The translations under genes and the position numbers were made by a program. Source: Bryobacteraceae bacterium (lineage in GTDB: Bacteria; Acidobacteriota; Terriglobia; Bryobacterales; Bryobacteraceae). From it: DNA of 64,000 nucleotides. Below are positions 23,339 to 31,455 of the stretch, in pieces. The notes under the pieces were generated by a model. It saw only the letters and a list, made by a program, of their open reading frames with translations, searched no databases and was not told where the DNA came from. Position 1 is the first letter of the stretch; each line of letters starts with the position of its first letter. The stretch covers positions 1 through 64,000 of the forward strand of contig JAIEPW010000016.1 of NCBI GenBank assembly GCA_019748195.1, read 5' to 3'.

Positions 23339-24193
23339 ATGCCCACCAAAACCAGGCCGCCCCAGACCCAGGATTCCCAACCGGGTATCGAAACGGAGAT
23401 GCACCCGAAACCCGATTCCGGGCAGCACACCTACCGGGGCTCCGGGAAGCTGGAGGGCAAGCGAGCCCTGATCACCGGCGGCGACAGTGGGATCGGGCGC
23501 GCGGTCGCGATTGCTTTCGCCCGCGAGGGCGCCGACGTCGCTGTCGCTTACCTGAATGAGCACCACGACGCGGAAGAAACGAAGCGTCTGGTGGAGGAAT
23601 CCGGATCGCGCTGTATCACCGTAGCCGGCGATATCGGCGATCCGCGGTTCTGTTCCCGGCTGGTGGAGCAGACCGTATCGGAACTCGGCGGACTCGACAT
23701 TCTGGTGAACAACGCCGCGGAGCAGCATCCGCAGGACAGTCTCGAAAAGATCACGCCGGAACAATTGGAGCGAACCTTCCGCACTAACATCTTCTCCATG
23801 TTCTATCTGACGCAGGCAGCGCTCGAACACCTGGGGGAAGGCGGCGCGATCATCAACACCACTTCGGTTACCGCTTACCGCGGCAGCGCCCACCTGCTGG
23901 ATTATTCCTCAACCAAGGGCGCCATCGTATCGTTCACGCGATCCCTGGCGCAGTTACTGGCGGAGAAAAAGATCCGCGTGAACGCGGTGGCGCCGGGTCC
24001 CATCTGGACGCCGTTGATTCCGTCGACGTTCGACGAGAAGAAGGTGGAGTCGTTCGGCGCCAATGTGCCTCTGGAGCGGCCAGGCGAGCCCGCTGAGGTC
24101 GCGCCGAGTTACGTGTTCCTGGCGTCCACAGACTCCTCCTACATGACCGGGCAGGTATTGCACCCGAATGGTGGAGAGATCATCAATGGTTGA
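23339..24193 (+). CDS. SDR family oxidoreductase (YghA / general stress dehydrogenase type)
   Basis: 284 aa. An N-terminal extension of about 40 residues rich in Pro, Thr and Gln ('MPTKTRPPQTQDSQPGIETE') precedes a classical short-chain dehydrogenase: 'ALITGGDSGIGRAVAIAFA' (NAD(P) loop), 'NNAAEQHPQ', the Ser-Tyr-Lys triad in 'NTTSVTAYRGS' and 'LLDYSSTKGAI', and 'RVNAVAPGPIWTPLIPS'. The N-terminal extension is typical of the YghA/GsiB-neighbour/stress dehydrogenase branch, which uses NADP and short-chain or sugar alcohols. Substrate is not predictable. The gene converges on a sigma factor gene only 10 nt away. Confidence 0.9.
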   Translation: MPTKTRPPQTQDSQPGIETEMHPKPDSGQHTYRGSGKLEGKRALITGGDSGIGRAVAIAFAREGADVAVAYLNEHHDAEETKRLVEESGSRCITVAGDIGDPRFCSRLVEQTVSELGGLDILVNNAAEQHPQDSLEKITPEQLERTFRTNIFSMFYLTQAALEHLGEGGAIINTTSVTAYRGSAHLLDYSSTKGAIVSFTRSLAQLLAEKKIRVNAVAPGPIWTPLIPSTFDEKKVESFGANVPLERPGEPAEVAPSYVFLASTDSSYMTGQVLHPNGGEIING

Positions 24194-24203
24194 ACACGCC
24201 CGC

Positions 24204-24743
24204 TCAAGCGGCGGTTTTCAACAGTTTGGAACGCAAGCCACGGCGGATGCGAAGCAGGCGGACGCGTACGGTGACGGGAGTGAGGCCCACGCGATCGGCG
24301 ATTTCCTTGGTGGTGTACCCTTCCAGGTAATAACCGCTCAGGATGGTGGAATCGCGGCGCTCGCACTTCGTCAGGATGCGATTCACGTCCATGCCGCTGA
24401 GAGGCAGCGCGCCGGCTCTGGCCGTTTCCGTCAGCCGTTCCAACTTCTGCTCCGATCGCAGGCGGTTCTTCAGCATGTTCTTGGCAATGCTGTTCACCCA
24501 AGCTCCCACAGTATCGGGACGCTGCAGTTGTCCCCGGCATTCCCATCCCTTCGCCCAGGCTGCCTGAGCCACTTCCTCGGCGGTGTCGCCGGGAGCCCCG
24601 CGAGAGAGGAGAAAGCGCAGAGTCAGGTTGTAGCCGCTCCGGTAGGCTTTGCCGAATTCTTCCTGAGTCAGGGGCCGGGACTCCGGCCAGGCCGGACCTT
24701 CCATGGGGCTGAGCCACGGATCTGATGTCTGCTGAAGTTGCAT
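24204..24743 (-). CDS. ECF-type RNA polymerase sigma factor
   Basis: 179 aa from ATG 24743. Sigma region 2 is in 'AEEVAQAAWAKGWECRGQ' and 'VGAWVNSIAKNMLKNRLRSE'; region 4 is in 'LSGYYLEGYTTKEIADRVGL' and 'VTVRVRLLRIRRGLRSKL' (helix-turn-helix). These are the marks of an ECF sigma factor that I cannot place in a numbered group. No anti-sigma factor gene is adjacent. Its neighbours are the SDR stress dehydrogenase and the DUF883/DUF3618-like membrane proteins, so it may direct a stress regulon. The long upstream open frame is not coding in appearance and was not used. Confidence 0.85.
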   Translation of the reverse strand: MQLQQTSDPWLSPMEGPAWPESRPLTQEEFGKAYRSGYNLTLRFLLSRGAPGDTAEEVAQAAWAKGWECRGQLQRPDTVGAWVNSIAKNMLKNRLRSEQKLERLTETARAGALPLSGMDVNRILTKCERRDSTILSGYYLEGYTTKEIADRVGLTPVTVRVRLLRIRRGLRSKLLKTAA

Positions 24744-25151
24744 AGGTGCTCGGGCATTCGAACCAGCAATTCCGGGGCCAGCGCAAAAACCTGCGTCCTC
24801 AAGAGCTAAGTGGTTGCAATGATTAGGAGGAGGCGCGCTCCATTCAACCTCGGGGCCCAATCTCAGTAGGTATTTTCTTCCGCCTGCGTGATGGCAATTC
24901 AAGCTGGGTGGCCGCACGCCTGACTCGTTGCGCGGATTCGACTGCGCCCTGGCCCCAGGCCGGGGATGTCGCGAAGCGGTGCTGCGAGGAGCGCTACGCC
25001 ATACCGACTGATTCAACGTCCGGCCCTGCGCCAGGCCGTATCGCGCTTCACTCGGGACAAAACTTCTTCCCTGGAACGACAGCGATTCCGCGTCGCCGGC
25101 GGATCGCGGGGAAGTCAAATTGCTTCATACAGAAGAGCCGAAGGAGGCTGA
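24744..25151. other. Intergenic region, 408 nt, between divergent sigma-factor and DUF883-like genes
   Basis: No gene-like frame is convincing here. The region should hold the promoters of both divergent genes. A strong ribosome-binding site, AAGGAGG, lies just before ATG 25152. No clear -35/-10, GG-N10-GC, or ECF GGAAC/GTC pair at proper spacing could be identified. A poor match around 25074 (GGAAC) has a 14-nt spacer to a GTC, which is too short. Confidence 0.5.
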
Positions 25152-25466
25152 ATGAATCCTACAAACACCCGCAACGAGATCGAAGAACGTGTGGAGGCCG
25201 GGCGCGAGCGCGCCGCCTCCCGCATACGCGATGTCGCCGATACCCTTCGTGAAAAAACTCACAGCACGCAAGATCGTGTCGTGGAAATCGCCGATCGGGC
25301 CGCCGATCGCATGACGCAGGCTGCCGATTATATGAGCACTCACGATTTTCGTGCCATGTGCCGCGACGCTGAAGGGTTTCTTCGCAAGTATCCAACCCAG
25401 TCCGTGGCCGCGGCCCTGGTGCTCGGCATCCTTGCGGGCAAGGCGCTGCGACACCGGGAGGCTTAA
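25152..25466 (+). CDS. Small DUF883/ElaB-like membrane protein
   Basis: 104 aa with a strong AAGGAGG ribosome site. The N-terminal ~75 residues are a charged amphipathic helix ('RNEIEERVEAGRERAASRI', 'RVVEIADRAADRMTQA'); the C-terminus is a short hydrophobic, glycine-zipper-like segment ('QSVAAALVLGILAGKALR'). This is the layout of ElaB/YqjD/DUF883 proteins, inner-membrane-anchored and ribosome-associated stress proteins in enterobacteria. It is followed 228 nt later by another small membrane protein. A stress-related envelope role is inferred from type and context. Confidence 0.75.
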   Translation: MNPTNTRNEIEERVEAGRERAASRIRDVADTLREKTHSTQDRVVEIADRAADRMTQAADYMSTHDFRAMCRDAEGFLRKYPTQSVAAALVLGILAGKALRHREA

Positions 25467-25694
25467 GGTGTGCGTAGCGCCCGGCCGGCGTCCCAAGTCC
25501 TCGCCGCGTTCCGGACAATTCTCTGGATCTGGCCGGCTGAAGTCAACCCGGGTGCGCGCCGAATAGCGGGAGGACGCGCGGATGCTGTTGGCCAGTGCTG
25601 CCGTCTCAGGGGTCCGGACCGGTGGCGGGGGGGTACGTCGCCGGGCCGGACCTCGCAGTCAATCAGTTCGTAAATCGTAAAGGAGAATACGAAA

Positions 25695-26141
25695 TTGGAA
25701 CAGGAATCTGAACGCATTGAAAAACACATCGAGGAGCGGCGCGAGCAGTTGGGCCGCAACCTGGAAGAGCTCGAGTCGAGGGTGAAATCAAACTTCGACT
25801 GGAAGACTCACTACGCGAAGAACCCCTGGCTGGTTCTGGCAATCGCCTTTACCGGCGGTGCGGCGGTTGGCGCCATGGCCTCCGGCGGCAGCCGCCCGGG
25901 TGCTTATGGCAGGCGCTCTTACGTGGGAAGCGGCGGAATGGAGTCCAGCTCAGGCTTGAGTTCGCAAGCCGGCTCCCGGCTAGCCAGCACCTGGGGGAAC
26001 ATCCAGGGCGCGGTGCTTACGGCCGCCACCCGCAAGGTTGAAGATTTTCTGGACGAGCTTCTACCGGGTTTCCGGGACGAGTATCGCAGCCAAAGCGGTC
26101 AACAGCGCGGCGGCGAGTCCAGTTCCCCTAGCATTCAATAA
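25695..26141 (+). CDS. Small DUF3618-like membrane protein
   Basis: 148 aa from TTG 25695, preceded by AAAGGAG. The N-terminal helix ('IEKHIEERREQLGRNLEELE') has the 'I...I...R..L...L..LE' pattern of DUF3618. A transmembrane segment follows ('PWLVLAIAFTGGAAVGAMA', residues 48-66), then a Ser/Gly-rich region and a C-terminal amphipathic helix ('AATRKVEDFLDELLPG'). The gap upstream (25467-25694) does not contain a convincing gene; in many genomes a phage-holin-like protein is found in such clusters, and here none is visible. A stem-loop directly follows the stop. Confidence 0.75.
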   Translation: MEQESERIEKHIEERREQLGRNLEELESRVKSNFDWKTHYAKNPWLVLAIAFTGGAAVGAMASGGSRPGAYGRRSYVGSGGMESSSGLSSQAGSRLASTWGNIQGAVLTAATRKVEDFLDELLPGFRDEYRSQSGQQRGGESSSPSIQ

Positions 26142-26145
26142 AACA

Positions 26146-26169
26146 AGGGCGATCCGAAAGGATCGCCCT
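26146..26169. terminator. Intrinsic terminator hairpin, likely bidirectional
   Basis: AGGGCGATCC and GGATCGCCCT form a perfect 10-bp stem with a GAAA loop on the plus strand. The plus-strand tail (CATTCTCC) is a weak T-run; the minus-strand tail reads TGTTTTATT, a better one. It lies between the DUF3618-like gene (+) and the minus-strand carbohydrate operon ending at 26223, and probably stops both. Confidence 0.8.
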
Positions 26170-26222
26170 CATTCTCCTCCGACAAGCAGAAATCTCCTCT
26201 AGCGGTAAATTTCTACCCAGCG

Positions 26223-26456
26223 TTACTTCACCAGCACGATAATTGTCCACTTGGTGGATCCGTCGTTAACTTCTCTCCATCCGCTGCAACTTCGGCGTTC
26301 CAAGACCGCAGCCACGTTATCGGTAAAGGACCTGCCGCCAAAGGTATCTCCGACGATCACCCCGCAAGGCAAAGATTTGGCGATACTTGGGTCAGTGACG
26401 CCGGTGATGACCTGCTGCACGTCAAACGTGGGATTCGTGACTGTGGTCGTACGCAT
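26223..26456 (-). CDS. Small protein of unknown function, last gene of the glycan operon
   Basis: 77 aa with a very good ribosome site (TAGGAGGT, 12 nt before ATG). It begins 'MRTTTVTNPTFDVQQVITG' and continues with Ser/Gly/Val-rich strands and two Cys; there is no signal peptide or membrane helix. It starts 17 nt after the stop of the glycosyltransferase-flavoprotein fusion and is followed by a terminator with a good minus-strand tail, so it is the last gene of that operon. The strong translation signal and position make it likely to be a real protein. I recognise no family. Confidence 0.6.
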   Translation of the reverse strand: MRTTTVTNPTFDVQQVITGVTDPSIAKSLPCGVIVGDTFGGRSFTDNVAAVLERRSCSGWREVNDGSTKWTIIVLVK

Positions 26457-26473
26457 TGTGGGTTTCGTACCTC

Positions 26474-29224
26474 CTACCCTTTATCGAGAACCGCGGAAGC
26501 CAGCGGCATGGTTTGCCGCAGCGTCGTTTCGTTCTGCAACCTGCGGTCCATTTCCAGGGCCGTCTCCGCCGCCTTACGGCCGGCAATGAATGCATGATCC
26601 GAGTTGTAATACTCCCATTCGCTGTACCGTCCCGCCAGTATGATGTCGTGATCGGCGAGCCATTCTCGAATCATCTCCACCGCCTGCTTCCGGTTATGGT
26701 CGTATACGACGTAGGCGTAGGGTAGGTCCACCTGGGTGGCGACCCAGACGGGATCGTTCTCGTCGATGATCCCTACCTTCCGGCAGTCCGCGATGCAGCG
26801 GTCGATCAAAGCCTGCCCGTCGGCCGGAAGCGGCTTGTGCTCCGAATAGGTGATCTCGCAGGTCAGCCCGAACCCGCCGGGCGGATTGCAATGAGGGCTT
26901 GCGTTCCCCTGGACGAAGATGCGGTGAAACACGGTGTCCTCCGGGTAGTAGATCCAGTGCTTTTCGGTCACGTTTTCGCGCCCGATGCCCAGGTGTACAC
27001 ACCGTACCGACACATGCCGCAGCAGGTCCACGGCTTCGCGAATGTTGGCCGGCGCGCTGTTGCCCATTGCCCGGATCAGAGCCGGGAGCGGCATGGTGCT
27101 GATCAACTGCCGGTAGCGAATCTCCTGCCCGTCGCTGAGCGTCACCGAATGACGTAGCGGAGAGACGCGTTCCACGCGGGTGTTCAGCCGCAATTCGCCT
27201 TTCAGATGCGGGAGGAAGCCGCTCATTAAGGCCTGAAAGCCGCCCCGCAGCGGATATCCGAAGCGCGCGTTCGGCCCCATCGGTTTCGGCGTCGGCTTTA
27301 ACGCGCCGTCGATCATCTCCTCGAGGTCGGGCATGGGGACACGGCCGCCGAGCCACGATGTTTCCATCTCACTCAGCGGGACGGCCCATAGCTTTTTGTT
27401 GTATGGAATCGCGAAATGCTTGGCGATGCCCGCGCCCCAAACCTTGTAAATGAACTCCTCGAAGTTCCGCGGTTCCGCCTTCTCACCAGGCGTAACCCGT
27501 TCCTTGCTCAGCGGGGCGGAACTCTCCAGAATGCCGTCCCCGCAGCAATCCGCCACTCCATCCCGCGCGCACTCCTTGGAATGGACCGCGTTTCCATTCT
27601 CGTGCAGATTTCCCTTCAGCGAACCGTTCGCGCGCCCGTTGGCGGCGGCGCCGTTCGCTGGCGATCCGTTGCCGGCGCCATTTGCCTGCTGCGGGCGAGG
27701 CGGCTTGGATGGGCCGAAGCGCGCCTCAATGGCGCCCACGATACATTCCTTCACCACATCGGCAGGCAGGCCATACAGCGAGCCCTGGAAGGGATATCGC
27801 GTGTATACGTTCTTGCTGTACACCCACGCTTCACGATCCTGCCAGTGGACGTTGTCGCCGAGCAGCAAATTGTACATCTGGTGCACATACGGATCGGCGG
27901 AAAACATAATATGGCCGGCGTAGTCGAAGGTAAAGCCCTCTTGCTCGATGGAGCGGCACCAGCCGCCGACCTCGGAGTTGGACTCGATAAGCATGGCGTT
28001 CTCGCCCAGGTGGTAGGCCGCGCTCAAGCCCGTGGGTCCCGCGCCGGCAACCAGTATGGGGGCTGATGCGGGCAGCGTGGAGTTGGAGCTCAGATCCACG
28101 GTCGCCGAGCGGCGGCCGCCGATCGCATCTTCGATCAACGCCTGCATGCTCTCCACGGTGCGGCTCCAGGAAGTGCGGGCGATGACCCGCGAGCCTTCCT
28201 CGATCCGCGCGCGGCGCTCGGCGTCGCCGCAGCTCAGCGCGTCCTCACAAGCCTTGAGGAAAGCGGCGGGAGTGTCGCCGATGAACACGAAACGGCCGAA
28301 GGGCTCCACCACGTCCTGAATCGGCGTGCTTACGATCAGCTTCCGCGCCGCCATGTATTCCAGCGTCTTGGTGGGGCTGATGAAGCGCGTCGCCTCATTG
28401 CGCGCGAACGGCAGAAGGCAAACATCCCAGCCGCGGAGGTACGAAGGAAGCTGAGCGTATTCCCGCTGGCCCAGGTAGGTGATGTTGTCGCGCCGCGGCA
28501 GAGTGGCGGGATCGATCTTCACCACCGGACCTACCATCACCAGGTTCCACTCCGGATGGGCCGCCGCGATCGCGTCCAGAATACCGAGATCAATGCGCTC
28601 GTCGATGACTCCGTAGTAGCCGAACTTGGGTCCCTTGAGATGGCGCTGATCGCCGGCCTCCTCCTGCTCCACGACGCCGCGCGAGAAGTGCTCCGCGTCC
28701 ACACTGCTCGGGAAGCAGTGCACATTCGCGTGCATTTTCCGTTTCGCGTTATACAAGCTGCGGCCTCCCGTGAAAACGAGATCCGACATCGCGAACAACT
28801 GCCGCTCCCGCTCCACCAATTGCGGCGGCGCGTGCAGAAAGCCCGAGAGCTCATCCATGCAGTCATAGATCACTGCCTTGGGACGAAGCAGGTCCACCAA
28901 GGGAAGCGCCATTGGCGTGTAAAACCATGCGATATGATCATCAGCCTGGCCGGTCTTCAGGAAATCCGACAAGAGCAACCGCAGCAGGGGAAGTTGCTCG
29001 TCATGAAATCCGCTGTGCGCAACCGGCGTATGGGGGCGGAGAACGGTCACGTTCGGCGCCGGGCTTGTGATCTCCCAGCGCGCCTGCGAGGAATCGAACA
29101 CGGGCTCTTCGATGAAGAATACCTTTCTGTCTTGTGCCAGCCGCGAAAGCAAATGCTGCGGGCGCTGGTGGACGAAATTCCATCGAAGATGAGAGAAAGT
29201 GATGATTGCCGCGCTGTCGCGCAT
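26474..29224 (-). CDS. Fusion: GT4-like glycosyltransferase + UDP-galactopyranose mutase-like flavoprotein
   Basis: 916 aa from ATG 29224, with AAGGAG upstream. Residues ~1-370 are a GT-B glycosyltransferase: 'HLRWNFVHQRPQHLLSRLA' opens it, 'FGYYGVIDERIDLGIL' and 'FISPTKTLEYMAARKLIVST' are the donor-domain motifs. After a Ser-rich linker, residues ~388-916 are an FAD-dependent amine-oxidase/UDP-galactopyranose-mutase-like domain: 'ILVAGAGPTGLSAAYHLG' (Rossmann), 'EVGGWCRS', 'GHIMFSADPYVHQMYN', 'FEEFIYKVWGAGIAKHF', and a late 'GRYSEWEYYNSDHAF' FAD motif. Between residues ~505 and 585 sits an Asn/Gly/Ala-rich low-complexity insert. The enzyme could interconvert a nucleotide sugar or oxidise one and transfer it, but the sugar is unknown. 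Separate genes for these two activities are the norm. Confidence 0.85.
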   Translation of the reverse strand: MRDSAAIITFSHLRWNFVHQRPQHLLSRLAQDRKVFFIEEPVFDSSQARWEITSPAPNVTVLRPHTPVAHSGFHDEQLPLLRLLLSDFLKTGQADDHIAWFYTPMALPLVDLLRPKAVIYDCMDELSGFLHAPPQLVERERQLFAMSDLVFTGGRSLYNAKRKMHANVHCFPSSVDAEHFSRGVVEQEEAGDQRHLKGPKFGYYGVIDERIDLGILDAIAAAHPEWNLVMVGPVVKIDPATLPRRDNITYLGQREYAQLPSYLRGWDVCLLPFARNEATRFISPTKTLEYMAARKLIVSTPIQDVVEPFGRFVFIGDTPAAFLKACEDALSCGDAERRARIEEGSRVIARTSWSRTVESMQALIEDAIGGRRSATVDLSSNSTLPASAPILVAGAGPTGLSAAYHLGENAMLIESNSEVGGWCRSIEQEGFTFDYAGHIMFSADPYVHQMYNLLLGDNVHWQDREAWVYSKNVYTRYPFQGSLYGLPADVVKECIVGAIEARFGPSKPPRPQQANGAGNGSPANGAAANGRANGSLKGNLHENGNAVHSKECARDGVADCCGDGILESSAPLSKERVTPGEKAEPRNFEEFIYKVWGAGIAKHFAIPYNKKLWAVPLSEMETSWLGGRVPMPDLEEMIDGALKPTPKPMGPNARFGYPLRGGFQALMSGFLPHLKGELRLNTRVERVSPLRHSVTLSDGQEIRYRQLISTMPLPALIRAMGNSAPANIREAVDLLRHVSVRCVHLGIGRENVTEKHWIYYPEDTVFHRIFVQGNASPHCNPPGGFGLTCEITYSEHKPLPADGQALIDRCIADCRKVGIIDENDPVWVATQVDLPYAYVVYDHNRKQAVEMIREWLADHDIILAGRYSEWEYYNSDHAFIAGRKAAETALEMDRRLQNETTLRQTMPLASAVLDKG

Positions 29225-29322
29225 GTTTTGGCTCCTTGCGAACGAAAAAAGTCCGTTAGTCCCCACGCAAGGGTGGAACATGGCGCGGGGGCACACTGCT
29301 ATGTGCAACTGTTCTGCCAAAG

Positions 29323-30489
29323 CTACCCGAGCCCGGCCTCTTTGACGATCTGCTGGCTTTGCTGTAGGGCAGCCGCATATTCCGCGTTCAACACTCGCCG
29401 CAGATCGCCTGACTCATCCCGTACGTCCCACAGCCCGCTGTTGTGCCAATGATTGGGGTTCTCCCAGTCATACCGATCCAGAATCGGATACAGACAAACG
29501 CCCTCCACGCAGGCGCCGCGGCGGCACGCCTCCGCCACTTCGCGCGCGATCTCCAGAATCCACTTGCCGCGGCCGACGCCGAAATGGCTCGTTTCCGAAA
29601 CACACACCGGCCGCTCGTAGCGGTGCGCCGCCTCGAGAATGATCTGATGGAAGGGCACCCAGCGCGGATCGCGAGGCTCGTCCTCCCACCGCAGCCGGTC
29701 CAGCGTGTGTTCCCACTGGTTGGCGTGATAGTAATTGAGACCGACAATATCGAGGTACTTCGCGGCGCCGCCGAGTTCCGGCTCCAGTCGCCCCGCGATC
29801 ATGTCCCAGGCCTCGTATTGGGCGCGGTTGTACGACTCAGCCTCGGCGGCCAGGTCCGGCCGGGAGCGCGGCGGAAATACGCGCACTACCGGCTCTGGAT
29901 ATAGAAAGCGGGCGCCGGGGTTGACATCCAGAATGGCATCGCAGGCCGCGATGGTCGCCCGCACCAGTTGCCGCTTCAGTTCCTGGTCCCGCCCCGTTGC
30001 GAACGGATACATGAAGTCCCGGCACGCGGCCCAACACAAGAAAGAGATCTCATTGACAGGCGTAAAGCAGGGGATCTCGTCCGAGCTTTCCGTCAACACC
30101 CGGGCGGCGGTTCGGGCAAGCGCCGCCAGCCGGTCGACAAACGCGGCCGAGAACACGTCGAGATCGTCCGGCCAGCCGTAATGACAGAGCGTCCAGATGA
30201 CCTGCACGCCTGCCTGGCGCGCCGCCTTCACCATCGGAAGCCAGGAGCTTAGATCGTGGCTTCCGCCCCGGTCTACCAGCGGCCAGCGAATTCCGTCGCG
30301 CGCGCAGCGGATGCCCAGGGGCGGCAAGCCGGCATAGTCCTCCGCCGCCTTGCGATCATGCTGGACGCCCGCCAGCAGGTCCACCCGGTGGCCGTGCCGG
30401 TTGCGGTGATCGGCGGATTCAAAACCCGCCATCCAGAAAGAACGAAAGAGGCGGTTCTGTCGCGTAGCCGGATTCCAGTCTGACATCAT
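29323..30489 (-). CDS. Glycoside hydrolase, clan A (GH1-like)
   Basis: 388 aa. The start is taken at ATG 30489 (ACAGGTAAA precedes it); 30486 and 30504 are alternatives. A (beta/alpha)8-barrel enzyme of clan GH-A is suggested by the two acidic residues in the expected strands: Glu147 in 'FTPVNEISF' (acid/base, after strand 4) and Glu299 in 'VCVSETSHFG' (nucleophile, after strand 7). 'LGIRCARDGIRWP', 'WTLCHYGWPDDLD' and 'LNYYHANQWEH' also fit GH1-related enzymes. The substrate is unknown. It lies 98 nt upstream of the glycosyltransferase-flavoprotein gene, on the same strand, so it is probably in the same unit. Confidence 0.82.
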   Translation of the reverse strand: MMSDWNPATRQNRLFRSFWMAGFESADHRNRHGHRVDLLAGVQHDRKAAEDYAGLPPLGIRCARDGIRWPLVDRGGSHDLSSWLPMVKAARQAGVQVIWTLCHYGWPDDLDVFSAAFVDRLAALARTAARVLTESSDEIPCFTPVNEISFLCWAACRDFMYPFATGRDQELKRQLVRATIAACDAILDVNPGARFLYPEPVVRVFPPRSRPDLAAEAESYNRAQYEAWDMIAGRLEPELGGAAKYLDIVGLNYYHANQWEHTLDRLRWEDEPRDPRWVPFHQIILEAAHRYERPVCVSETSHFGVGRGKWILEIAREVAEACRRGACVEGVCLYPILDRYDWENPNHWHNSGLWDVRDESGDLRRVLNAEYAAALQQSQQIVKEAGLG

Positions 30490-30584
30490 TTTACCTGTTT
30501 GCATGTGAAGAGCCCGCCCGTTTAGGGGGGCGCGCAGGCGGAAACTACCTCGGAAGGAAGATTCGGTGCCCGCCGCCGCCCCGC

Positions 30585-31106
30585 TCAATCGGCCGGAATG
30601 TGTATTTTTAACTGATCCGCCAGGGAATCCACGGCGGTGTTCTGGCTCATATCCCGCGCTTCTTCGTCATGCGCCGCCTCGCGAATACCCAGCCGGTCGC
30701 ATATCATCCGCTGCAGTTGCAGCAGCTTGGTGATCTCCTTCTCCGCCAGCAGGTCGATCTGCAGGTTCAGGTGCGCCCGCCGGTCGCTGCCGGCGCTCAT
30801 GCGGTTCTGCTTCATCAATACAAAGGAGGAGAGAAGCACCGCCTCGCAGGAGACGATCAAGGCGAGAAACACGAATGGAAATGGATCGAATGGCCGGAGA
30901 AACGGCGCCCATCCCGAGTTGACCAGGATGTACAGCGCGAATCCGCAGACGTGGAGCAGCGAGAAGAAGAAGCTGCCGGTGAACGCTGCAATCGCGTCCG
31001 CGATGCGCTCCGGAGTCGTCCTCTGCCTTCGGAACTCCTGCTCGAGCTCCGCGATGACACGAATGTTCTCCTCGGCCGCCAGCGGCGGGCTCAGTCCAGG
31101 CTGCAT
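30585..31106 (-). CDS. DUF1003 domain membrane protein
   Basis: 173 aa from ATG 31106. The core matches DUF1003: 'ERIADAIAAFTGSFFFSLLH' then 'FALYILVNSGWAPFLRPFDPFP' and 'FLALIVSCEAVLLSSFVLMKQNRM', two transmembrane segments with the conserved 'FDPFP..L..I.S.EA....F.L..QNR' pattern, followed by a soluble C-terminal helix. The function of DUF1003 is unknown. It is divergent from the GlsB-like gene with a shared upstream region of 88 nt containing a sigma-54 promoter facing the other way. The upstream open frame to 31301 is not coding-like. Confidence 0.85.
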   Translation of the reverse strand: MQPGLSPPLAAEENIRVIAELEQEFRRQRTTPERIADAIAAFTGSFFFSLLHVCGFALYILVNSGWAPFLRPFDPFPFVFLALIVSCEAVLLSSFVLMKQNRMSAGSDRRAHLNLQIDLLAEKEITKLLQLQRMICDRLGIREAAHDEEARDMSQNTAVDSLADQLKIHIPAD

Positions 31107-31134
31107 GCCGGAAGAAAAGCAAGTACCTCTCCAT

Positions 31135-31160
31135 GGGATTTGGCACGGGGATTTGGCACG
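31135..31160. repeat. 13-bp tandem duplication of the -24 promoter half
   Basis: GGGATTTGGCACG occurs twice without a gap (31135-31147 and 31148-31160). Each copy contains the TTGGCACG core of a sigma-54 -24 element, but only the second is followed by a correctly spaced -12 element. Confidence 0.9.
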
Positions 31161-31169
31161 AGGTTTGCT
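31154..31169 (+). promoter_or_regulatory. Sigma-54 (-24/-12) promoter of the GlsB-family gene
   Basis: TGGCACG-AGGT-TTGCT is an exact match to the RpoN consensus (TGGCACG-N4-TTGCW), with GG (31155-31156) and GC (31167-31168) 10 nt apart. The start site is expected near 31180, leaving a leader of about 15 nt with the ribosome site GGGAGAG before ATG 31195. Confidence 0.85.
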
Positions 31170-31194
31170 GATAGTTAGAGTGGGAGAGAACACA

Positions 31195-31455
31195 ATGCCC
31201 GAAATTCTGACTTGGATCATCTTTGGGTTGATCGTGGGTGTTATCGCGAAGTTCCTGATGCCGGGACGAGATCCCGGCGGGATCATCGTGACGATACTCA
31301 TCGGTATCGCTGGTTCACTGCTCGGGGGGTGGCTGGGTCGCGCATTCGGACTCTATACGCCAGGACAACCCGCCGGGTGGATCATGTCCATCCTAGGTGC
31401 GCTGGTATTGCTCATGATCTACCATGCTGTTCGTGGTAGGACGAGGACGGCGTAA
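31195..31455 (+). CDS. GlsB/YeaQ/YmgE family stress-response membrane protein
   Basis: 86 aa from ATG 31195, preceded by GGGAGAG. Three glycine-rich transmembrane segments: 'ILTWIIFGLIVGVIAKFLMP', 'GGIIVTILIGIAGSLLGGWL', and 'AGWIMSILGALVLLMIYHAV'. The 'GLIVG.IA..L.PG.DPGG...T...GI.G...G' pattern is that of the transglycosylase-associated/GlsB family, linked in other bacteria to general stress response. The promoter is a sigma-54 type (31154-31169), so expression needs RpoN and an activator. A perfect terminator follows. The three features together make a compact, self-contained unit. Confidence 0.9.
   Translation: MPEILTWIIFGLIVGVIAKFLMPGRDPGGIIVTILIGIAGSLLGGWLGRAFGLYTPGQPAGWIMSILGALVLLMIYHAVRGRTRTA

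What the first reader, a model, noticed from the sequence alone, without database searches (positions are those of the whole stretch)
26474..29224. Glycosyltransferase fused to a mutase-like flavoprotein, with an Asn/Gly-rich insert in the flavin domain
A complete GT-B glycosyltransferase (residues ~1-370) is joined to a UDP-galactopyranose-mutase/amine-oxidase-like domain (~388-916). These are usually separate genes. In addition, residues ~505-585 are a low-complexity insert rich in Asn, Gly and Ala placed between the substrate-domain segments of the flavoprotein. The fusion suggests channelling of an altered sugar (for example a furanose form) straight to transfer.
Basis: partly seen in the sequence, partly recalled or inferred. 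Interest (0 to 1): 0.6.

Follow-up and report, generated by a model that had tools for sequence, protein, structure and literature searches.

The report
Fused galactofuranose-making and galactofuranose-transferring enzyme
A soil bacterium joins, in one protein, an enzyme that probably reshapes activated galactose into its rare five-membered-ring form and an enzyme that probably attaches it to something, and the same pairing recurs in many other bacteria with either of two different versions of the first enzyme.

Summary
Window 26474-29224 (-) is one uninterrupted 916-aa gene: a GT-B glycosyltransferase (about 1-370), a linker, then a UDP-galactopyranose mutase (UGM) domain (about 387-895) interrupted by a disordered Asn/Gly/Ala-rich loop. 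The UGM is of the eukaryotic type, not bacterial Glf; all 13 substrate-contact residues listed for the fungal enzyme are kept here and in the 46 fusion relatives aligned. The fusion recurs in Acidobacteriota, Planctomycetota and Pseudomonadota. In a phylum sample, all 21 other loci with a strong match to this GT have it fused or next to a UGM: bacterial Glf in 20, eukaryotic-type in one. Partner class changed at least twice on the GT tree. Galactokinase, GalT, a GH2 and GH1-like proteins recur nearby. Best reading: a bifunctional UDP-Galf-forming and Galf-transferring protein. Activities, acceptor and channelling are untested. New detail: the loop carries a near-invariant DCC(A/G)DG motif, not seen in the few UGMs examined that have no GT beside them; its role is unknown. 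New variant of a known kind, moderate interest.

The parts
28115..29224 (-). GT-B glycosyltransferase domain, residues 1-370
   Evidence: Pfam PF13692 35.7 bits (cut-off 27); GT-B fold, Z 32.4 to sucrose-phosphate synthase 6kih and 31.4 to MshA 3c4q; pLDDT mostly 80-97
28067..28114 (-). interdomain linker, residues 371-386
   Evidence: pLDDT under 50 at 375-385; variable in length among relatives
27713..28066 (-). UGM domain, first part (FAD-binding GAGPTG, AGH loop, RYPFQ), residues 387-504
27467..27712 (-). disordered Asn/Gly/Ala-rich insert, residues 505-586
   Evidence: pLDDT about 30 over most of it; composition test; length and sequence highly variable in relatives
27533..27550 (-). conserved DCC(A/G)DG motif inside the insert, residues 559-564
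   Evidence: DCC in 76 of 90 distinct UGM sequences parsed; 45 of 47 rows of A3; in 69 inserts with DCC, 1000 rounds of shuffling each insert gave DCC in at most 4 of them
26540..27466 (-). UGM domain, second part (substrate-binding residues), residues 587-895
29323..30588 (-). GH1-like glycosidase gene directly upstream, same strand, 98 bp before the fusion; true start uncertain (conserved part begins near 30453)
   Evidence: AF2 pLDDT 88.6; GH1 beta-glucosidase fold Z 37; a homologous domain is N-terminally fused to GT-UGM in 22 of 80 loci

Best explanation
The protein is a bifunctional enzyme of galactofuranose (Galf) metabolism. Its C-terminal, eukaryotic-type UGM domain, with reduced FAD, converts UDP-galactopyranose to UDP-galactofuranose; its N-terminal GT-B domain takes UDP-Galf and transfers Galf to an acceptor not yet known. 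Shown by sequence and model: both folds, intact UGM substrate-contact residues, recurrent coupling of this GT family with UGMs of two distant classes, galactose genes nearby in some relatives. Inferred: the reaction direction, the Galf donor of the GT, and the acceptor. Not shown: channelling. The disordered loop with DCC(A/G)DG may serve the partnership with the GT or control the flavin's redox state; this last step is a guess.
For: UGM fold: Z 41.4 (2.6 A, 430 residues) to 4dsh (T. cruzi UGM; the organism is recalled), 37-39 to A. fumigatus UGM, 28-31 to bacterial UGMs; phmmer E 6e-50 to the fungal enzyme. All 13 UDP-Galp contacts of AfUGM in Table 3 of PMC3624792 (passages read) are identical in the window and in the other 46 aligned fusions (related sequences, not independent events); of six relatives outside the fusion set four keep 16 of 16 checked sites, two keep 14 and 12. 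No PF03275 (Glf) match in the genome. GT coupling: of 396 genomes of the phylum 22 have a GT hit at E<=1e-60; the 21 besides the window all have it fused or next to Glf (20) or an eukaryotic-type UGM (1); none of 7 distant GT loci, with about 1.5 kb flanks, has one. GT tree: parsimony minimum 2 changes of UGM class; the Comamonas GT beside Glf sits within the UGM-fused clade (99 SH-aLRT). Within up to 6 kb, galT and/or galK in 10 of 80 loci, GH2 in 26, some GH (fused ones counted) in 58; Methylomagnum has fusion-GH2-galT-galK-GH1-like in a row. Own genome has galE and galK overlapping.
Against: No activity is measured. The GT has no close characterised relative; TuaH (NCBIfam) is matched far below cut-off (70 of 550 bits). 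The AGH loop differs from the GGH that the review calls unique to eukaryotic UGMs, and some FAD contacts differ. UGM residues alone do not prove UDP-Gal over, say, UDP-arabinose or UDP-GalNAc. galT/galK lie near in only 10 of 80 loci; I saw none near the window's fusion, and galT was not found in the 19 kb around the genome's galK (not sought genome-wide). The fusion is patchy: full length in 4 of 37 same-family genomes searched. Domain orientation in the model is not trustworthy (pTM 0.54), so no channel can be inferred. Fused and split versions both occur.
Confidence: 0.75

Rival explanations
1. The UGM domain works, but on another nucleotide sugar (UDP-arabinopyranose, UDP-GalNAc or the like), so the module makes a different furanoside.
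For: Specificity is not fixed by the residues tested; galK/galT are near in only 10 of 80 loci; some relatives carry GH1-RmlD fusions beside it.
Against: The contacts to Galp in AfUGM (R182, N207, N457) are invariant in 47 of 47; GT partners also include Glf, and the two Glf partners scanned pass the UDP-galactopyranose mutase equivalog cut-off; galT/galK were the sugar-activating genes I looked for and found recurrently, others were not systematically sought.
Confidence: 0.12
2. The two domains are fused only for co-expression; both work on separate pools, with no channelling and no special role for the loop. (Compatible with the best explanation, a rival only to its coupling part.)
For: Same pair occurs as neighbouring genes (L043-L046; 17 of 21 phylum loci have GT and Glf as separate ORFs); linker and loop are disordered in the model; six fusions lack the motif.
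Against: Fusion exists with both UGM classes (6 Glf-fused and 50 UGM-fused rows in the tree), and the DCC motif is conserved within an otherwise free-running loop.
Confidence: 0.5
3. The C-terminal part is an amine-oxidase-like redox enzyme (PRK07208 type), not a mutase.
For: Pfam names it Amino_oxidase, several records call relatives FAD-dependent oxidoreductase; its best NCBIfam matches are PRK07208 hypothetical proteins, below cut-off, and bacterial Glf models miss it (TIGR00031 16 of 303.75 bits).
Against: Fold and listed substrate contacts match UGM better than the other amine-oxidase-like enzymes seen; related GTs have true Glf in its place.
Confidence: 0.05
4. The fusion is an assembly or frameshift artefact.
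For: Draft genome of 154 contigs.
Against: Colinear fusions in isolates and complete plasmids of many genera.
Confidence: 0.01

Closest known systems
Eukaryotic UDP-galactopyranose mutase (A. fumigatus UGM, T. cruzi UGM)
   Same: Fold, FAD motif, all 13 listed substrate contacts
   Different: Bacterial host, fused to a GT, AGH instead of GGH loop, disordered insert with DCC(A/G)DG
Bacterial Glf (TIGR00031, PF03275)
   Same: Partner of the same GT family in other bacteria, sometimes fused
   Different: Window domain misses both models
TuaH-like and GT4-like GT-B glycosyltransferases (MshA, BshA, PglA)
   Same: GT-B fold; weak TuaH match
   Different: Low identity (10-15% in the structural alignments); linked to a UGM in all 21 phylum loci examined
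Bacterial galactan loci with separate mutase and GT genes (e.g. Kingella pam, PMC12269835, passages read)
   Same: UGM and Galf transferases act in one pathway
   Different: There the Galf transferases are of families GT2 and GT111 and separate from the mutase

Membership tests
UDP-galactopyranose mutase (any class) | GxGxxG FAD motif | tested here: met
   GAGPTG 394-399; G394, G396 and G399 invariant in A3
UDP-galactopyranose mutase, eukaryotic type | Substrate-contact residues Y104 F106 Q107 F158 N163 W167 R182 N207 Y317 R327 Y419 Y453 N457 | tested here: met
   13 of 13 identical in window and in 47 of 47 rows, list from PMC3624792 Table 3
UDP-galactopyranose mutase, eukaryotic type | Overall fold closer to eukaryotic than bacterial UGM | tested here: met
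   Z 37-41 against 28-31
UDP-galactopyranose mutase, eukaryotic type | Two-glycine histidine loop (GGH) | tested here: not met
   A436-G437-H438, Ala in 47 of 47; I therefore say eukaryotic-type UGM relative, not a plain member
[quoted passage not shown]
   needs assay
Bacterial Glf | TIGR00031 / PF03275 above cut-off | tested here: not met
   TIGR00031 16 bits of 303.75; PF03275 not listed
GT-B glycosyltransferase | Pfam glycosyltransferase group 1 domain and GT-B fold | tested here: met
   PF13692 35.7 of 27 bits; Z 27-32 to GT-B enzymes (that these are GT-B is recalled)
TuaH | NF047676 equivalog cut-off | tested here: not met
   70.2 of 550 bits
Galactofuranosyltransferase | Uses UDP-Galf as donor | not testable with these tools
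   inferred from UGM linkage only
GH1 (upstream gene) | GH1 fold | tested here: met
   Z 37 to 3zjk and 1ug6
GH1 (upstream gene) | GH1 family model above cut-off | tested here: not met
   TIGR03356 21.5 of 478.5 bits; no Pfam GH1 hit
GH1 (upstream gene) | Two catalytic glutamates | tested here: inconclusive
   N179-E180 at least 90% and E332 invariant in 23 rows; their roles are assigned from recalled GH-A patterns

The most novel reading that the evidence does not exclude
The GH1-like protein, the GT and the UGM are one assembly line, in some bacteria a single chain of about 1250 residues, that makes an undescribed Galf glycoconjugate, and the disordered DCC(A/G)DG loop is a redox- or metal-sensing tether that couples the flavin state of the mutase to the transferase.
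Probability: 0.12. Interest if true: 0.8.

Novelty: new variant of a known kind. Interest (0 to 1): 0.5.

Why it matters
It gives a bacterial eukaryotic-type UGM in a natural fusion with its probable transferase, and a family of GTs whose donor can be predicted from their partner. It would make a direct test of furanose channelling possible, points to Galf chemistry in soil and nitrifying bacteria where records often name only an FAD-dependent oxidoreductase, and exposes a conserved Cys-Cys motif with no assigned role in a mutase type that, by the review read, works only with reduced flavin.

Tried and rejected
Assembly or frameshift artefact: rejected by colinear homologues. Amine oxidase reading: rejected by fold and residues. 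DCC(A/G)DG as a motif shared with other proteins: a DNA pattern for it gave 16 places in 13 of 61 genomes (the reversed control pattern gave 7); 4 are fusion genes. The other 12 lie in ORFs of 31-578 codons that I only looked at by eye and did not test as genes; I saw no second family with the motif, but this is not a proper search. Neighbouring genes as a guide to the acceptor: 20 ORFs scanned, of 134 selected from 24 loci, showed no O-antigen polymerase or flippase family; an amidohydrolase and a second GT follow the fusion in L047 and L057. A candidate exporter was not excluded: an ABC transporter follows the module in Azospirillum, Skermanella and Chimaeribacter and 5 of 80 loci have an ABC hit. 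Literature: nine searches of the held library gave, among the top rows shown, no paper that I recognised from listings as describing a GT-UGM fusion or this motif; several had more hits than were listed, and subscription journals and preprints are not held, so this is weak.

Limits on counts: the 80 loci are the best of 314 relatives, found by patterns in the UGM domain and ranked on the full-length query, so fusions are favoured. The GT tree used 91 of 119 rows; 28 rows were dropped by hand, chosen by name as kin of rows kept and not by a computed cut-off, and 10 loci had been left out as duplicates or cut sequences; three partner labels (L021, L124, L127) were set by hand from the ORF positions. 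The UGM tree left out 39 named loci, and two of its five outgroup rows have very long branches. Both are quick trees with SH-aLRT support only. In one search, 7 of 93 ORFs were not parsed (three of the seven print a DCC); one search repeats the count with another rule, with 1 ORF (L014) not parsed.

Full report
What is there. The gene at 26474-29224 on the minus strand is a single open frame of 916 codons with an ATG start and AAGGAG before it. It is the only full-length match in its genome; two other contigs hold only distant GT matches. Pfam places a group 1 glycosyltransferase domain in the first part and an NAD(P)-binding/amine-oxidase pair in the second. A model built on 47 fusion sequences shows two confident domains, a soft linker at 375-385 and a disordered stretch at 511-581; the relative orientation of the domains is not determined (mean pLDDT 82.8, pTM 0.54).

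The second domain is a UGM of the eukaryotic type. The best solved relatives by sequence are eukaryotic UGMs (E about 1e-50 to 1e-47): A. fumigatus, and 4dsg/4dsh, which I recall to be T. cruzi. By structure they score Z 37-39 and 41.4 (2.6 A over 430 residues), bacterial UGMs 28-31. The bacterial models TIGR00031 and PF03275 do not accept it, and the genome has no PF03275 match at E<=0.001. A review gives the UDP-Galp contacts of the fungal enzyme in its Table 3 (PMC3624792, passages read). Mapped through the alignment, all 13 are identical in the window and invariant in the 47 rows of alignment A3, as are the FAD contacts H63, T18 and R447. D38, L46 and S461 differ, S39 is kept in the window but in no other row, G456 could not be mapped and V242 was not checked. 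The loop that is GGH in eukaryotic UGMs is AGH here, in 47 of 47. As a check on how telling the residues are, 16 sites (the 13, H63, R447 and W315, the last from recall) were read in six relatives outside the fusion set: L007, L012, L014 and L127 keep 16 of 16, L009 14 and L015 12.

The first domain is a GT-B glycosyltransferase, nearest in fold to sucrose-phosphate synthase, MshA, BshA and PglA (Z 27-32, 10-15% identity). Its closest named family, TuaH, is matched far below its cut-off.

The fusion is widespread but patchy. Among 61 genomes (the window's and 60 relatives) the full-length fusion is in the window's genome, G006, G022 and G027 (4 of 61; 4 of the 37 of the same family). On plasmids, 17 of 72,556 records hold a match over at least 80% of it. 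In GTDB species genomes the scan found 314 relatives; in the best 80, 54 are GT-UGM fusions, 22 carry in addition an N-terminal GH1-like domain in the same chain, and 4 have GT and UGM as neighbouring genes. By record title these 80 are Pseudomonadota 56, Acidobacteriota 10, Planctomycetota 9, Gemmatimonadota 3, Chloroflexota 1 and one unplaced; in Gemmatimonadota and Chloroflexota only the split form was seen. The ranking favours fusions.

The GT is tied to UGM, whatever its class. Of 396 genomes sampled from the phylum, 22 hold a GT match at E<=1e-60. The 21 besides the window all have a UGM fused (3) or next to it (18): Glf in 20, an eukaryotic-type UGM in one (L127). Seven loci of distant GTs picked up in earlier searches, with flanks of about 1.5 kb, have none. 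On plasmids the same GT is fused to Glf in Azospirillum, Gloeothece and Sinorhizobium, and stands beside Glf in Deinococcus radiodurans, Caballeronia, Skermanella and Comamonas; these are 7 of the 11 plasmid regions that I opened, the other four carrying the eukaryotic-type UGM. On the GT tree, 27 rows with Glf form one clade (97 SH-aLRT) and the rows with the eukaryotic-type UGM another (95), with L127 at the base; the least number of changes of partner class is 2, the second being Comamonas endophytica, whose GT is fused to the GH1-like domain and followed by Glf although it groups with UGM-fused GTs (99 SH-aLRT). A close relative of the window, G032, has GH1-like+GT in one chain followed by Glf. 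The review puts identity between the two UGM classes at 14-18%. Use of either by one GT family is good evidence that the GT needs the product of a mutase.

Galactose genes and glycosidases accompany it in part. Methylomagnum has fusion, GH2, galT, galK and the GH1-like gene in a row. In the 80 loci, a GH2 occurs in 26, galT and/or galK in 10, some GH (fused domains counted) in 58, though flanks were at most 6 kb and many contigs short. In the window's genome galE and galK overlap on another contig, and a GH2 59% identical to the Methylomagnum one lies about 8 kb further on; no galT was found in those 19 kb and galT was not sought genome-wide. In the window itself a GH1-like gene lies 98 bp upstream on the same strand; its model has the GH1 fold (Z 37) with a conserved N-E and a second invariant Glu, although no GH1 family model accepts it. 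An ABC transporter follows the module in Azospirillum, Skermanella and Chimaeribacter; 5 of 80 loci have an ABC hit.

The insert. Four UGMs with no GT found beside them (L007, L009, L012, L015), and L127, which is beside a GT but far from the fused clade, have only 48-51 residues between the YPFQ (or YPFE) and PYN motifs. Fusions carry a longer, disordered and very variable segment. Yet DCC is present in it in 76 of 90 distinct UGM sequences; the 14 without are three Gemmatimonadales with split genes, six fusions (five Polaromonas and Novimethylophilus), L007, L009, L012, L015 and L127. Of 69 parsed inserts with DCC, 64 read DCCADG or DCCGDG, and 1000 rounds of shuffling each insert gave DCC in at most 4. 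G014's solo UGM (L007), 75% identical to the window in its main stretch, lacks GT and insert but branches within the fused clade beside L036 (99 SH-aLRT), so both were probably lost together. This suggests, and does not show, that the insert serves the partnership. Against it: six fusions lack the motif, and so do three split pairs.

How it most likely works. UDP-Galp, from galactose salvage or from GalE, is converted to UDP-Galf by the reduced-flavin UGM domain; the GT domain moves Galf to an acceptor. Shown here: fold, residues, linkage. Inferred: donor, direction, acceptor. Channelling is possible but not shown, and split versions show that fusion is not required. The chance that the two domains simply travel together is substantial (rival 2).

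What is known. Nine searches of the open-access library showed, in the rows listed, nothing that I recognised as describing this fusion. Papers looked at beyond listings: PMC3624792, PMC12269835, PMC11658790 and PMC8092308, passages only. The families are known; the fusion, the class swap and the motif are, as far as these searches go, undescribed. I rate it a new variant of a known kind.

Noticed in passing
L044, L045, L046 (Gemmatimonadales), insert of the UGM: The split-gene UGMs carry a different shared insert, DYTGP(D/E)RRGMFEPL followed by a second YxGx(D/E)RR, in place of the DCC motif.
   Followed up: no
L024 7811-11756 (Ewingella plasmid): The GH1-like, GT and UGM parts lie in three successive ORFs, unlike the single chain on the Pantoea and Chimaeribacter plasmids looked at.
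   Followed up: no
window 23339-31301: Genes around the fusion look like a stress-type cluster: SDR, sigma-70-like factor, a weak DUF3618 match (below cut-off), DUF1003; a DUF1003 gene also lies near the GT-glf pair of Deinococcus radiodurans. The stress reading is my own.
   Followed up: partly
L036: A contig labelled Nevskia soli (isolate BOG_genome_mining) groups with genomes of the window's family on both trees and may be misbinned or transferred.
   Followed up: no
L012 (G019) and L014 (G015): Bacterial eukaryotic-type UGMs with all 16 checked AfUGM residues and no GT found in the short flanks held.
   Followed up: no
L135 12518-14797 (Sinorhizobium sp. C101): A gene annotated as glycosyltransferase, near the GT-Glf fusion, has a GH1-like domain as its C-terminal half; its N-terminal half was not identified here.
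   Followed up: no
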